Origin: Lentibacillus sp. CBA3610
GTDB taxonomy: Bacteria > Bacillota > Bacilli > Bacillales > Amphibacillaceae
Direction: 5' to 3'
Length of the DNA stretch: 64,000 bases
Assembly (NCBI RefSeq): GCF_013373365.1
Contig: NZ_CP035925.1
Coordinates: 2,170,001-2,234,000 of the forward strand
Below the pieces are notes generated by a model, which was not told where the DNA came from, searched no databases, and saw nothing but the letters and a program-made list of their open reading frames with translations. The stretch's first letter is position 1, and each line of letters opens with the position of its first letter. A program made the translations under genes and the position numbers. Shown here piece after piece: positions 50,176-55,252 of the stretch.

Positions 50176-51579
50176 CTATTTAGCTAGTTGTTTTTTTTCT
50201 ACCGGATTTGCAAAGTAATTCTCTGTTTCACGTTTAACGACTTTAAACAGCAGCAATAATCCAATCAGGTTTGGTATTATCATAAGCCCATTTGTCAGAT
50301 TGGCAATCGTCCACATGAGTGATAAGTCGGCTACTGAGCCAAGAAACGTACAAGCAATATAAAGCACACCGTAAATAGATAGATATTTTAAACCGAATAA
50401 ATATTCAAAGCACTTCGCTCCATAGACATACCAGCCGATAATCGTGGAAAATCCAAAGAACACAACGGAAATGGACACGATATATTCACCAAGCACCCCG
50501 AGCGCTGATCCAAATGCGGCACTGGTTAATGCACCTGCTTCAAGGCTGGGATCATGTTGTACGCCGGAGAGAAGTCCTCCAGAAGGATCCCAGAAACCAG
50601 TAACAAGCAGAACAAGACCAGTCATGGTGCAAACAATAATCGTTACAATGAACGTACCTGTCATCGCAACAAGTCCCTGCCTCACAGGATGTGTTGTCTT
50701 CGCGTTACCAGCAATTAGTGCGACGGTACCCAGACCGGCTTCGTTGGAGAATATTCCTTTTGAGACACCCTGCTGGATTGCCTGGCTGACGACAACGCCT
50801 GTAAAACCGCCAGCTGCAGAAACAGGGGTAAAGGCATGTTCAAAAATCAACCCGAATGCCGGGAGAATTTTATCATAGTTAACGATTAAAACTAATAGAG
50901 CACCAACAATATATAAAACAGCTAAAATTGGTACGAATACACCAGCCACATTACTGATGCGCTTCAAACCACCAAAAATGATAAGACCAACCAGAACAAC
51001 GAGCAGTAAGCCTGTAATCCAACCGGTGACATTGAAACTATTATCCATGACATCAGCAATGGTATTTGACTGGACACCATTTCCGGTTCCAAGTGCAGCA
51101 ATTGCCGCGAAAAGAGCGAATGCGACAGCTAGAGGCTTCCACTTCTTGCCAATCCCGCGTTCGATATAATACATCGGTCCACTGGAATATTCACCATTCT
51201 CATTTTTTACCCGATAAATTTGCGCGAGTAATGCCTCTGAGTATTTGGTTGCCATTCCAAGCAGTCCGACAACCCACATCCAAAAGAGCGCTCCCGGTCC
51301 ACCAAGTGTAATAGCCGTCGCTACCCCAGCGATGTTACCGTTGCCAATCATGCCGGCAAGCGAAGTCATCAGCGCCTTAAAGTTACTGACGTCTCCTTCA
51401 GCACTCGAATCCTTTTTGTCGGGAACAAAGGCAAGTTTTAAAGCATATGTCAGCTTGCGAAATGGCATCCCTTTTAAAATAATTGTTAGAAAGATACCGG
51501 TTCCAACAAGCAAAATTAAACTGGGTGCTCCCCAAAGAAAGTCGTTTATCTTATTTAATATATCTACCAAATATCCCAT
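50176..51579 (-). CDS. alanine/glycine:Na+ symporter (AGCS family)
   Basis: 467-aa amino-acid carrier with about ten to eleven helices. Hallmarks are SLAGMIGNGNIAGVATAITL, GGPGALFWMWVVGLLGMATK, the YSSGPMYYIERGIGKKWKPL loop and QGVSKGIFSNEAGLGTVAL. It imports alanine or glycine with Na+, matching AlsT/DagA-type carriers. Its promoter and a cre-like site lie upstream. It ends the stretch between the two tRNA sequences. Confidence 0.93.
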   Translation of the reverse strand: MGYLVDILNKINDFLWGAPSLILLVGTGIFLTIILKGMPFRKLTYALKLAFVPDKKDSSAEGDVSNFKALMTSLAGMIGNGNIAGVATAITLGGPGALFWMWVVGLLGMATKYSEALLAQIYRVKNENGEYSSGPMYYIERGIGKKWKPLAVAFALFAAIAALGTGNGVQSNTIADVMDNSFNVTGWITGLLLVVLVGLIIFGGLKRISNVAGVFVPILAVLYIVGALLVLIVNYDKILPAFGLIFEHAFTPVSAAGGFTGVVVSQAIQQGVSKGIFSNEAGLGTVALIAGNAKTTHPVRQGLVAMTGTFIVTIIVCTMTGLVLLVTGFWDPSGGLLSGVQHDPSLEAGALTSAAFGSALGVLGEYIVSISVVFFGFSTIIGWYVYGAKCFEYLFGLKYLSIYGVLYIACTFLGSVADLSLMWTIANLTNGLMIIPNLIGLLLLFKVVKRETENYFANPVEKKQLAK

Positions 51580-51628: not shown

Positions 51629-51749
51629 TAAAGCAAAATCTTAGATATCGCTTACATTAAAATGCCTCCAAATAAACCACCTCTCCAGTAACCATTTACT
51701 CAAAATAAACCGTTATCAAAAACGACAATTATCAGACAATATAAATCTA

Positions 51750-52097: not shown

Positions 52098-54056
52098 TTA
52101 CGCTTCAGCCGTTTTAAGACCTCCCGCATCATCATCTTTCCGCTGTTTTTGAATGAACCATACCGCTGCAATGAGTCCTATGCCAACCACATTCGTTACG
52201 AACTCAGGAAGAATGAGCGATAAGCCTCCCGCAAACAATGCGAGCCGTTCCCAAGCTCTTGATTTTCTGGCAAAGTACCCAATCATGGCACTGCTGATTC
52301 CCATCATGCCAATGACAGCTGTAATGACGGCCATGACAAGATTCACCGCGGTCACGTCCACCAGTACAAGGATCGGATTATAAACGATAATATACGGGAT
52401 GATAAACGCAGCAATAGCCAATTTGACAGCTGTTACCCCTGACTTGAATGGATTTGCTCTGGCAATGCCTGCCCCCGCATATGCGGCGAGACAGACCGGC
52501 GGGGTGATATCCGCAACAATGCCAAAATAGAACACAAACATATGCGCAGCAATCGGCTCAATCCCGAACTCATTAATTAGCGCAGGGGCTGCAACTGTCG
52601 CGGTCACAACATAATTGGCTGTAGTCGGAAGTCCCATGCCCAGTATAATACAGGCAATCATGGTGAAAATGAGTGCCAATACCAGAATACCACCGGATAA
52701 AGCGATGATTCCGGCAGCAAACTTGGATCCAAGTCCGGTGATGCTGACAACTCCCGCAATAATTCCTGCCGTCGCAACAGCTGCAATGACCGGGAGTGCC
52801 ACCCTTGCCCCCTGCTCCAGCACATGAATAATCTCGCGCAGGGACATCCGGGTTTCCTTGCGAATAAAGCTGACCAAAAAGGCAGAAACAATACCGAGCA
52901 ACGCAGCACGCTGAGGGGTGAACCCAATTAAAATCGTTCCAATGATCATCAGCAATGGAAGCAATAAATAGCCATATTTAATAAACAGCGTCCTGAAAAC
53001 CGGCAATTCGGATTTTGGCAGCCCCAGTATACCAAGTTTTTTGGCTTCAAAGTGCGTCCCGATAAAGATACCTGTAAAATATAATATTGCCGGGATCGCC
53101 GCGGCCAGCATAATCGTTGAGTATTGCACGCCTAAATATTCCATCATAATGAAGGCCGCAGCACCCATTAACGGCGGCATGATTTGGCCACCTGTTGAAG
53201 CGGAGGCTTCGGTTCCAGCAGCAAATTCCGGTTTAAATCCGGCTTTTTTCATCATCGGTATGGTAAACGATCCCGATGCGACCGTGTTGCCAACTGAACT
53301 TCCTGAAACCATGCCCTGCATACCACTTGCTGCCACCGCTGCCTTGGCGGTTCCACCGGTATACTTTCCTGTCAGCGCAAATGCCATATCATTAAAAATT
53401 TTGCCGATATTCGTGTGAATGAGCAAGACACCAAAAAAGAGAAACAAATATATAAATTTCGAGGAGATTTGAATAGGTGTTCCAAATACACCACTTTCCT
53501 GAAACCATAAATCTGTTGCCACTGCGTCCAGAGAAAAGCCAGGATGGGATAAAACGTCTGTCGGAATATAGTTTCCGAAAATCGCATATAACAGCGTGAT
53601 GCTTGCTACAATAACAATCGGAAGCCCGACCGTGCGCCGTGTTGCTTCCAGAACAAGCAATACACCAATAATAGCCAGTACAATATCAATGGGGCTATAG
53701 CCGGAAATTCTGCTTTGCAATATGGATTCAAAAAAGAAAATTTTATGATACGTCACATACATCGCCATAAATGCCAGTATCACATCATACCAGGGAACGT
53801 TTTTCTGCTTTTTCTGCAATCCTTTTTTCGCCGGGAAAAGCAAGAAAATAATCCCAAGCGCTGTCCCTAAGTGAATAGCACCTTGCTGTTGCGATGGCAG
53901 TGTGCCGAAATAGCCTGTATATAAATGGAAAAGGGTTAAGGCAACACCCAAAAACATAACGATCCATGCCCATTTCCCAAGATTAATTCGCGATTGACTT
54001 TCTTTATCATATTTCGTCAACATTTCCTGTGTATCCGCATTAGATTGATTGCTCAT
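52098..54056 (-). CDS. TRAP transporter fused permease (4TM + 12TM)
   Basis: 652-aa membrane protein in which the small (DctQ-like) and large (DctM-like) TRAP subunits are fused, as in TAXI-type systems. N-terminal helices (WIVMFLGVALTLFHLYTG) are followed by the large-subunit motifs AAVAASGMQGMVSGSSVGNT, KPEFAAGTEASASTGGQIMP and GMGLPTTANYVVTATVAAPA. Na+- or H+-driven uptake of an organic acid captured by the TAXI protein encoded upstream. I placed the start at the ATG before SNQSNADTQ; the upstream frame is unsupported. Confidence 0.92.
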   Translation of the reverse strand: MSNQSNADTQEMLTKYDKESQSRINLGKWAWIVMFLGVALTLFHLYTGYFGTLPSQQQGAIHLGTALGIIFLLFPAKKGLQKKQKNVPWYDVILAFMAMYVTYHKIFFFESILQSRISGYSPIDIVLAIIGVLLVLEATRRTVGLPIVIVASITLLYAIFGNYIPTDVLSHPGFSLDAVATDLWFQESGVFGTPIQISSKFIYLFLFFGVLLIHTNIGKIFNDMAFALTGKYTGGTAKAAVAASGMQGMVSGSSVGNTVASGSFTIPMMKKAGFKPEFAAGTEASASTGGQIMPPLMGAAAFIMMEYLGVQYSTIMLAAAIPAILYFTGIFIGTHFEAKKLGILGLPKSELPVFRTLFIKYGYLLLPLLMIIGTILIGFTPQRAALLGIVSAFLVSFIRKETRMSLREIIHVLEQGARVALPVIAAVATAGIIAGVVSITGLGSKFAAGIIALSGGILVLALIFTMIACIILGMGLPTTANYVVTATVAAPALINEFGIEPIAAHMFVFYFGIVADITPPVCLAAYAGAGIARANPFKSGVTAVKLAIAAFIIPYIIVYNPILVLVDVTAVNLVMAVITAVIGMMGISSAMIGYFARKSRAWERLALFAGGLSLILPEFVTNVVGIGLIAAVWFIQKQRKDDDAGGLKTAEA

Positions 54057-54152
54057 ACCATCACCATTTCTTTGGAAGATTTGAAAGTGGAGATGGACCA
54101 TTCACAGAAAATCCATCTCCACTCGATCAATTTTGGAAAATGTTAACGGTTA

Positions 54153-55157
54153 TTACAGATCATCAAAACTTTCAATACCTGTTGCTTCACGTGTTACGAT
54201 TTGGACAATCTCCGGATAGATATGGCCGATAAAGGCAGCATTGTCAACTTGGGCATCCTCAAAATCGCCTTCACCGTTCATAGCGTCAATTGCCGGGACA
54301 TTAACAGTCATGCCCAGATCCATATTGCCATCACGAATGCTGGACAAGTTTTCAACGGATGCACCTGTTTCCGTATTGGTCACACTCACGCCGTCAAGAT
54401 GATTATTCCATACGTTCGCCATCTCTCCACCAAGCGGATAGTAAGTGCCGCCCTGGCCTCCCGTACCCAGAACAAGCTCACTTTTACGATCTGACTCATC
54501 TGCCGGCAAATCGGCAACCTCATTTTCGACCGTTACACCTTGCTCTTCGTAATACCGTTTTGCTCCTGGATGAATCGGTAAACCTTCCGAACCCTCCAAT
54601 GCATTTTCAATCGTCATTTCCTCGGACTGTGCGTGTGTATTTTCATCGGCACTTTCCACCATAATCCTGGCTAGCTCATACCCAAGTTCTTCGTCAATTG
54701 TTTCTGTGTTGCCCATCAATATAGCACGTGCGGCGACTGTATTCACATCGGAATCCTGAAACGCATATGTGTCTGCCGGAATGGTGAACTGGTTGTAACC
54801 GCTGTTTTCCTCAATATGCGAAATCGCTTCATCGGACAACCCAAGTAATTTGACATCCCCTGCTGATGCCTGCAAATTTTCGATGCTTCCGGCCGGCATG
54901 CCTAAAATACCAATTGATACATCAATATTGCCGTCCTGTACACCGTCAGCTGCATCACCAAATCCCTCTTGATACGCATTGTAGTCGTCCTCTCCAATGT
55001 CATAAGCATCAAATATTAATTGTGAAGCCGAGTTTGTCTCACTGGCAGGCGGCCCAATCGCAATATTATTCCCGCCGCCCCCGCATGCACCAAGCAGCAG
55101 CGTCACCCCAAACAACAATGATATGATACTTACCACTTGTTTCTTTCGCATTCGCAT
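54153..55157 (-). CDS. TAXI-family TRAP binding lipoprotein, apparently circularly permuted
   Basis: 334 aa: signal peptide with lipobox LLLGACGGGG (Cys25). Residues 30-208 match what is normally the C-terminal part of TAXI proteins: NIAIGPPASETNSASQLIFD, DGNIDVSIGILGMPAGSI, FTIPADTYAFQD, ending GLPIHPGAKRYYEEQGV. After a linker (209-227), residues 228-334 match the normal N-terminal part: LVLGTGGQGGTYYPLGGEMA, TETGASVENLSSIRDGNMDL, HIYPEIVQIVTREATGIESF and a stop just after DDL. The natural order is reversed at the point where relatives read ADLKGKRVxxG. It feeds the fused permease downstream. ATG after GAGAGGAGAGGGG. Confidence 0.88.
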   Translation of the reverse strand: MRMRKKQVVSIISLLFGVTLLLGACGGGGNNIAIGPPASETNSASQLIFDAYDIGEDDYNAYQEGFGDAADGVQDGNIDVSIGILGMPAGSIENLQASAGDVKLLGLSDEAISHIEENSGYNQFTIPADTYAFQDSDVNTVAARAILMGNTETIDEELGYELARIMVESADENTHAQSEEMTIENALEGSEGLPIHPGAKRYYEEQGVTVENEVADLPADESDRKSELVLGTGGQGGTYYPLGGEMANVWNNHLDGVSVTNTETGASVENLSSIRDGNMDLGMTVNVPAIDAMNGEGDFEDAQVDNAAFIGHIYPEIVQIVTREATGIESFDDL

Positions 55158-55178: not shown

Positions 55179-55192
55179 TGACAGCGCTTTCA
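55179..55192 (-). promoter_or_regulatory. cre site upstream of the TAXI-TRAP operon
   Basis: TGAAAGCGCTGTCA on the minus strand, a full CcpA consensus match, between promoter and start codon. A weaker second site, TGATAGCGCTGTCC, is at 55228-55241. Confidence 0.75.
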
Positions 55193-55252
55193 ACGACACG
55201 TTAAATAGTGAAAATAAATGCAATGACTGATAGCGCTGTCCAATTTTAGTTC

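What the first reader, a model, noticed from the sequence alone, without database searches (positions are those of the whole stretch)
54153..55157. TAXI binding protein with its two lobes in swapped order (circular permutation)
After an ordinary lipoprotein signal, the mature protein begins with the segment that in TAXI proteins follows the KGKRVxxG hinge (NIAIGPPASETN...HPGAKRYYEEQGV). It then passes through a 19-residue linker into the segment that is normally first (LVLGTGGQGGTYYPLGGEMA...GIESFDDL) and stops exactly where relatives continue with the hinge. Nothing is missing; only the order is changed. The fused permease next to it is intact. It could be a natural permutant that folds into the same two-lobed shape with new termini, arisen by tandem duplication and trimming. 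I know of no described permuted TAXI protein, but could not search.
Basis: partly seen in the sequence, partly recalled or inferred. Interest (0 to 1): 0.82.

Follow-up and report, generated by a model that had tools for sequence, protein, structure and literature searches.

The report
Naturally circularly permuted TAXI transporter binding protein
A nutrient-catching lipoprotein of a bacterial membrane transporter has its protein chain re-threaded (old start and end joined, new ends opened elsewhere); dozens of related species keep the same rearrangement, so it is a real natural variant and not a sequencing error.

Summary
The gene at 54153-55151 (-) encodes a TAXI-family TRAP solute-binding lipoprotein whose sequence is circularly permuted. 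It is no artefact: 43 distinct genes from 41 genomes of two related families, read in sequence, have the same order, the same cut to within a few residues and a 17-20-residue conserved linker; four lie in single-contig genomes. In the window's family 30 of 159 genomes carry it, in the second 12 of 22. Permuted proteins form one clade (100/96); each half alone (99/93, 86/87) and the neighbouring permease (99) agree, so it arose once and travels with its own permease. Both halves are under strong purifying selection. AlphaFold2 predicts the usual two-domain fold with its elements in rotated order (pLDDT 90).

One correction: the swapped segments are not the two lobes. The cut lies 12 residues past hinge strand 1, inside domain 2; domain 1 becomes contiguous and the lipid anchor moves to domain 2, usually on a short tether. 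Most pocket positions match the nearest unpermuted relatives, so it probably works as an ordinary TAXI binding protein; its ligand is unknown. Permuted binding proteins are known in other families (TpMglB-2, glycine-betaine proteins); I found no described TAXI case.

The parts
54153..55151 (-). Circularly permuted TAXI-family TRAP solute-binding lipoprotein, 332 aa (334 aa if the ATG at 55157 is used)
   Evidence: Pfam PF16868 and TIGR02122 far above cut-offs with out-of-order stretches; 43 distinct genes with the same order
55083..55151 (-). Lipoprotein signal peptide and lipobox (LLLGAC), modified Cys = residue 23
   Evidence: Sequence read directly; a lipobox-like pattern was found in every row; lipobox consensus recalled
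54531..55073 (-). Segment that is C-terminal in ordinary TAXI proteins (most of domain 2, hinge strand 2, C-terminal part of domain 1), here N-terminal; residues 27-207
54708..54746 (-). Hinge strand 2 (model strand 113-125 = residues 136-148)
   Evidence: AlphaFold2 secondary structure
54477..54536 (-). Linker joining the old C-terminus to the old N-terminus (residues 206-225); first half conserved, one Ala invariant in 43 of 43
   Evidence: predicted well ordered (pLDDT means 97, 93 and 86 for model residues 181-190, 191-200, 201-210)
54156..54476 (-). Segment that is N-terminal in ordinary TAXI proteins (N-terminal part of domain 1, hinge strand 1, start of domain 2), here C-terminal; residues 226-332
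54192..54239 (-). Hinge strand 1 (residues 305-320 = VcGluP 116-131)
   Evidence: mapping of the alignment onto the domain limits of PMC11574862
52098..54101 (-). Fused TRAP permease (QM); the start may be the later ATG at 54056 (read by eye)
   Evidence: TIGR02123 E 1.9e-217; permease match downstream in 43 of 44 permuted locus rows, 42 of 43 distinct genes
54083..54124 (-). RNA hairpin between binding-protein stop and permease
   Evidence: Fold -25.3 kcal/mol, z -4.0
55179..55193 (-). Catabolite-repression (cre)-like site TTGAAAGCGCTGTCA just upstream of the start codon
   Evidence: Pattern match; cre consensus recalled; not tested for function

Best explanation
It is a genuine, functional, circularly permuted TAXI-type TRAP solute-binding lipoprotein, which arose once and has been kept in two related families of one order (f1, f2; the named members are NCBI Bacillaceae). 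Shown here: conserved permuted order, single origin, purifying selection, linkage to its own fused permease, a predicted canonical two-domain fold in rotated order, mostly unchanged pocket positions. Inferred: it is exported and lipidated at Cys23, closes on a small (probably carboxylate) ligand like other TAXI proteins, and hands it to the adjacent fused permease. The lipid anchor now sits on domain 2, usually six residues before the first core strand, instead of on domain 1 behind a mostly longer tether; the old termini are joined by an internal, predicted-ordered linker. Likely origin (inferred, not shown): tandem in-frame duplication, loss of the first N segment and a stop near the start of the second C segment.
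For: Order read in sequence: 44 locus rows permuted, 43 distinct genes from 41 genomes. Prevalence: 30 of 159 genomes in the family, 32 genes; 12 of 22 genomes in family f2. Single-contig genomes G000, G088, G152, G394 carry it. Trees: one clade in N+C (100/96), N alone (99/93), C alone (86/87); permeases likewise (SH-aLRT 99, 78 rows). dN/dS at most about 0.07 in the 18 of 20 comparisons where dS is not saturated. AlphaFold2 pLDDT 90, pTM 0.85; 20 of the 21 listed elements of the unpermuted control recur in rotated order, the missing one being the short helix at the cut. The control aligns along its whole chain to six solved TAXI entries at Z 32.9-37.5; the permuted model's best is OpuAC, Z 12.8. 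Of 13 mapped pocket positions most agree with the five nearest unpermuted relatives; 46, 156 and 201 differ wholly or partly. Permease downstream in 43 of 44 rows.
Against: Nothing has been measured: no ligand, structure or transport data. The C half alone gives only 86/87 support, and the bootstraps of the single-half trees had not settled. AlphaFold2 may know the TAXI fold from solved entries, so its confidence is not independent proof of folding. The key VcGluP ligand residue Gln93 is Val in all 43, so the ligand is unknown; pocket positions 46 (Tyr here, Phe in four of the five nearest relatives), 156 and 201 are not the same as in those relatives. One permuted gene (L002) has no permease match in its locus. 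Tether lengths are compared across what is one evolutionary event, five permuted proteins have tethers of 14-19, and one unpermuted relative (L071) has only 7. No duplication intermediate was seen.
Confidence: 0.9

Rival explanations
1. Assembly or sequencing artefact: the real gene has the normal order, or there are two tandem genes.
Against: 43 distinct genes from 41 genomes have the same order, four of them in single-contig genomes; linker and both ends are conserved.
Confidence: 0.005
2. A decaying or non-functional rearranged gene.
For: None found; the only oddity is one copy (L002) without a permease match.
Against: dN/dS at most about 0.07 in both halves in unsaturated pairs; no internal stops in the permuted matches listed; intact permease; persistence across two families.
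Confidence: 0.01
3. A chimera: the C half of one TAXI paralogue fused to the N half of another (fission and fusion between paralogues) and not a permutation of one gene.
For: Fission and fusion is an accepted route to permutants (PMC3320104, passages). The halves differ in closeness to some relatives: L006 53% C, 65% N; L071 59% C, 55% N.
Against: Both halves separately put the permuted rows in one clade, and the C-half tree puts that clade beside L006, L057, L068, L070 and L071 (fork 86/80). The N-half tree drawing was cut from view, so its sister group was not read. Halves from two very close paralogues cannot be excluded.
Confidence: 0.12
4. The protein works as a domain-swapped dimer or as an altered, signalling-type binding protein and not as a monomeric transporter subunit.
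For: Permuted ribose-binding-protein halves can swap elements and dimerise (PMC9815098, abstract and introduction passages); copy L002 lies next to a PAS-GGDEF-EAL-PilZ gene and has no permease match.
Against: A monomer with an ordered linker is predicted with high confidence, though only a monomer was modelled; 43 of 44 rows sit beside the permease; permeases form a matching clade.
Confidence: 0.06

Closest known systems
TAXI TRAP solute-binding proteins (VcGluP/VC0430 of Vibrio cholerae, TtGluBP of Thermus thermophilus; Pfam PF16868, TIGR02122)
   Same: Sequence family, predicted two-domain fold, lipoprotein signal as in many TAXI proteins, fused permease next door, Tyr45/Ser75/Glu125-equivalent residues present
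   Different: Chain order rotated with a new internal linker; lipid anchor on domain 2; Gln93-equivalent is Val, shared with the nearest unpermuted relatives
TpMglB-2 (Tp0684) of Treponema pallidum, 'Type Ic / Cluster Bc' binding proteins (PMC4990184; abstract and passages read)
   Same: Natural circular permutation of a tethered binding protein, found in treponemes and Gram-positive bacteria; authors suggest that the topology may be an adaptation to anchoring
   Different: ABC-type, Type I/Cluster B fold, different cut and an extra (fourth) hinge crossing; separate family
Glycine-betaine binding proteins such as OpuAC of Bacillus subtilis (PMC2395249, passages read, reports permutation relations among glycine-betaine-binding proteins; its reference list names OpuAC and ProX)
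   Same: Two-domain binding protein from a group with permuted members; OpuAC is the best whole-chain structural match of the permuted model (Z 12.8, 212 residues, rmsd 3.5). That OpuAC is the permuted form relative to ProX is recalled
   Different: 13% identity in that match; ABC transporter and betaine ligands (recalled and entry titles)

Membership tests
TAXI TRAP solute-binding protein | Scores above curated cut-off of PF16868 / TIGR02122 | tested here: met
   216 bits versus 27 and 224 bits versus 84.35; 43 of 43 members of A2 match PF16868
TAXI TRAP solute-binding protein | Family's linear order of segments | tested here: not met
   Profile end matches residues 27-205, and the start of solved TAXI chains matches residues after them; same in 43 genes. 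It is therefore a permuted variant
TAXI TRAP solute-binding protein | Encoded next to a fused TRAP permease | tested here: met
   TIGR02123 1.9e-217; 43 of 44 permuted locus rows
TAXI TRAP solute-binding protein | Two-domain fold with two hinge strands | tested here: met
   Prediction only: long strands 113-125 and 282-298, pLDDT 90, matching control strands 234-246 and 96-112
TAXI TRAP solute-binding protein | Ligand residues of VcGluP (Y45, S75, Q93, E125) | tested here: inconclusive
   Y, S and E conserved in 43 of 43, Q93 is V in 43 of 43; the paper finds Q93 in only 54% of its TAXI alignment
TAXI TRAP solute-binding protein | Ligand binding and transport | not testable with these tools
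   No biochemical data
Circular permutant of a TAXI protein | Matches relatives over its length after rotation | tested here: met
   Rotation raises global score from 505-582 to 908-947 against four unpermuted relatives
Type Ic / Cluster Bc (TpMglB-2-like) | Type I fold with that permutation | tested here: inconclusive
   Not among the 50 rows shown; sequence family is TAXI
OpuAC-like ABC binding protein | Membership in a glycine-betaine binding-protein sequence family | tested here: not met
   Only NMT1_3 found in Pfam at E up to 10; structural similarity only

The most novel reading that the evidence does not exclude
Moving the chain ends onto the other domain is itself adaptive for membrane-anchored binding proteins: here the lipid Cys is usually held six residues from the first core strand of domain 2, fixing orientation towards the permease. 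This would be convergent with TpMglB-2 and with OpuAC (whose tethering I recall, from no call), so circular permutation would be a recurrent evolutionary route for re-siting the anchor of tethered binding proteins.
Probability: 0.25. Interest if true: 0.8.

Novelty: new variant of a known kind. Interest (0 to 1): 0.58.

Why it matters
It is a natural, single-origin, widely kept circular permutation with close unpermuted relatives (halves 53-69% identical to the five nearest) that sit beside related permeases. That gives a clean natural experiment on whether chain order and anchor position matter for a binding protein's folding, hinge motion and docking on a TRAP permease. It bears on the suggestion made for TpMglB-2 that permuted topology is an adaptation to anchoring. 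It also shows that profile matches can come in the wrong order within one protein and still score as an ordinary family member.

Tried and rejected
Assembly artefact, pseudogene: rejected (see rivals). Remnants of the lost segments beside permuted genes: blastp of both halves of six TAXI proteins against three frames of up to 400 nt on each side of 43 genes gave three scattered hits (12-49 aa, E 0.027-0.62), none convincing. Duplication intermediates: no open frame above 415 aa among the listed matches. Permutants outside f1 and f2: none by match extent in the order sample (14 of 397 genomes with a full-length permuted match, all f1 or f2) or in the phylum sample (own genome alone, of 398). 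Those cut-offs (1e-45, 1e-40) could miss distant, independent permutants; most of the C-segment-only matches were not read in sequence; no other phylum was searched. Plasmids: no match at 1e-20 in 72,556 records. Literature: 'TAXI' + 'TRAP transporter' + 'circular permutation' 0 papers; 'circularly permuted' + 'TRAP transporter' 2 papers, one the TpMglB-2 paper, the other on jumbo phages (listing only); the library is open-licence PubMed Central only. Tether comparison: 31 of 35 unpermuted proteins measured; four (L058, L061, L062, L069) dropped because the motif search failed, all with long tethers by eye; the three distant TAXI proteins of the own genome (L009, L010, L012) were left out beforehand. 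The Mann-Whitney p there treats relatives as independent and is not relied on. No TAXI entry appears among the 50 rows; Foldseek did list the TAXI entry 9ibp over 201 columns, TM 0.49.

Full report
WHAT IS THERE. On the minus strand at 54153-55151 lies an ORF of 332 aa (an in-frame ATG at 55157 gives 334 aa) with a lipoprotein signal ending LLLGAC. After the Cys the chain reads GGGGNNIAIGPPASETN..., which in the TAXI profiles is the second part: Pfam NMT1_3 positions 111-289 and TIGR02122 positions 141-320 match residues 27-205. Residues 226-332 match the first part of solved TAXI proteins. A plain global alignment to four unpermuted relatives rises from 505-582 to 908-947 (best of 50 shuffles 59) when the window protein is rotated at the linker, and rotation lowers the score against two permuted relatives. 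Downstream is an intact fused TRAP permease.

HOW COMMON. A genome-collection scan gave seven loci. Six (Lentibacillus halodurans, Virgibacillus sp. MSJ-26 twice, Oceanobacillus damuensis, O. indicireducens, Ornithinibacillus gellani) have the permuted order over the full length; one (Fervidibacillus halotolerans) has the normal order. In the window's family 43 of 159 genomes match at 1e-40; 30 of these hold full-length permuted matches (32 genes), and the other 13 match essentially only the C segment. In family f2, 14 of 22 genomes match, 12 of them permuted. In an even sample of the order, 70 of 397 genomes match at 1e-45 and 14 are permuted, all in f1 or f2. In the phylum sample (398 genomes) only the own genome has a full-length permuted match. 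I read the order in the sequence for 44 permuted locus rows (43 distinct genes from 41 genomes; L082 repeats L004) and 38 unpermuted ones. The twelfth f2 gene (G930) rests on a single full-length profile match, and the other unpermuted matches were not read. The window's own genome also holds three ordinary-order TAXI genes.

ONE ORIGIN, LIVING GENE. I built trees of 80 de-permuted proteins, leaving out L082 (duplicate) and L012 (distant). The 43 permuted rows form one clade with support 100/96; with the N segment alone 99/93, with the C segment alone 86/87, the bootstraps of these two not having settled. Permeases next to permuted genes form a matching clade (SH-aLRT 99; quick tree of 78 rows, 42 permuted and 36 not; L002 has none, L006's is split and was dropped with L012 and L082). 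In the C-segment tree the nearest unpermuted sequences are L006, L057, L068, L070 and L071 (fork 86/80); in the N+C tree the fork that holds them and the permuted clade is open. In ten close pairs of permuted genes, scored separately for both halves, dN is 0-0.083 while dS is 0.17-1.5, or saturated in one pair; the ratio is at most about 0.07 in the 18 unsaturated comparisons.

ANATOMY. The crystal structure paper on VcGluP (PMC11574862, passages read) gives domain 1 as residues 29-115 plus 268-328, domain 2 as 132-254, hinges 116-131 and 255-267. Through the alignment, the window's last residue falls at VcGluP 143 and hinge strand 1 at window residues 305-320. So the cut is inside domain 2, 12 residues past hinge strand 1. 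The new chain runs: lipid Cys, domain 2, hinge strand 2, C-terminal part of domain 1, linker, N-terminal part of domain 1, hinge strand 1, short domain 2 tail. Both hinge crossings remain, domain 1 becomes contiguous, and the anchor moves to domain 2.

TETHER AND LINKER. Between Cys and the first core strand there are 6 residues in 30 of 43 permuted proteins (median 6, range 6-19) against a median of 24 (7-65) in 31 of 35 unpermuted ones measured. This is one clade, hence one event, and not a statistical test. The internal linker is 17-20 residues (median 18), its first half conserved, with one Ala invariant in 43 of 43, and is predicted as ordered (block means 97, 93 and 86 over model residues 181-210).

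STRUCTURE. AlphaFold2 on the 43-sequence permuted alignment gives mean pLDDT 90.0, pTM 0.85. The unpermuted control (Fervidibacillus, 35 sequences) gives 91.8 and 0.85. Of the control's 21 listed helices and strands, 20 recur in the permuted model in rotated order; the missing one is the short helix 120-123, at the cut, where the permuted model has a three-residue turn. The control aligns along its whole chain to six TAXI entries (4ddd, 1us4, 8u79, 9ibo, 8s4j, 9ibp) at Z 37.5-32.9 over 289-291 residues. The permuted model's best whole-chain match is OpuAC of B. subtilis (Z 12.8, 212 residues, rmsd 3.5), and Foldseek aligns the TAXI entry 9ibp over 201 columns only: the same fold threaded differently. 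Glycine-betaine binding proteins are reported to have permutation relations among themselves (PMC2395249, passages).

FUNCTION. Of 13 pocket positions named for VcGluP and mapped here, the permuted clade keeps Tyr45, Ser75 and Glu125 equivalents in 43 of 43. It has Val at Gln93 in 43 of 43, as do all five nearest unpermuted relatives and 22 of 30 others; eight others have Gln. Against the five nearest, position 46 is Tyr in 42 of 43 where four of the five have Phe; 156 is E 20, G 13, A 10 where all five have G; 201 is I 26, L 11, V 6 where all five have L; the other ten positions agree in at least 42 of 43 (the window protein alone has Gly at Ser40). So the permutation left the pocket largely unchanged, and the ligand is plausibly that of the unpermuted sister group; since Gln93 is a main glutamate determinant in VcGluP, glutamate cannot be assumed.

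ORIGIN. The two standard routes are duplication with trimming, and fission with fusion (PMC3320104, passages). The new N-terminus begins just before the IAIG strand and the new C-terminus ends at or a few residues after DL: between them they divide the DLKGKRIAIG stretch to within about three residues, as trimming of a tandem duplicate would need. No intermediate or convincing remnant was seen, so the route is inferred.

KNOWN OR NEW. The closest precedent in kind is TpMglB-2 of Treponema pallidum, a naturally permuted, tethered ABC binding protein, for which an adaptation to anchoring was suggested (PMC4990184, abstract and passages). The present case is a different transporter class and fold type. 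My literature searches found no description of a permuted TAXI protein, within an open-licence library only. I rate it a new variant of a known kind.

Noticed in passing
window 54083-54124: Strong hairpin between the binding-protein stop codon and the permease start (z -4.0); could set the ratio of binding protein to permease. Not compared with relatives.
   Followed up: partly
window 55179-55193 (-) and 51643-51657 (-): Two cre-like (CcpA) sites, upstream of the TAXI gene and of the sodium:alanine symporter gene (50176-51579); 6 matches in the whole window against 1.8 expected, reached by 2 of 100 shuffles; consensus recalled. Suggests carbon-catabolite control.
   Followed up: partly
L002:4352-8567 (Virgibacillus sp. 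MSJ-26): A second permuted TAXI gene of this genome, without a permease match in its locus, lies directly upstream of a PAS-GGDEF-EAL-PilZ (c-di-GMP) gene on the same strand; might feed a signalling system, or be chance.
   Followed up: partly
L006:6023-9497 (Fervidibacillus halotolerans): The fused permease next to this close unpermuted relative is split by a DDE transposase gene.
   Followed up: yes
L074-L080 and L090: A separate unpermuted TAXI group (7 loci of the window's family, one of another family) has Gln at the VcGluP Gln93 position (8 of 30; sequences), so may be the glutamate-type transporter of these bacteria.
   Followed up: no
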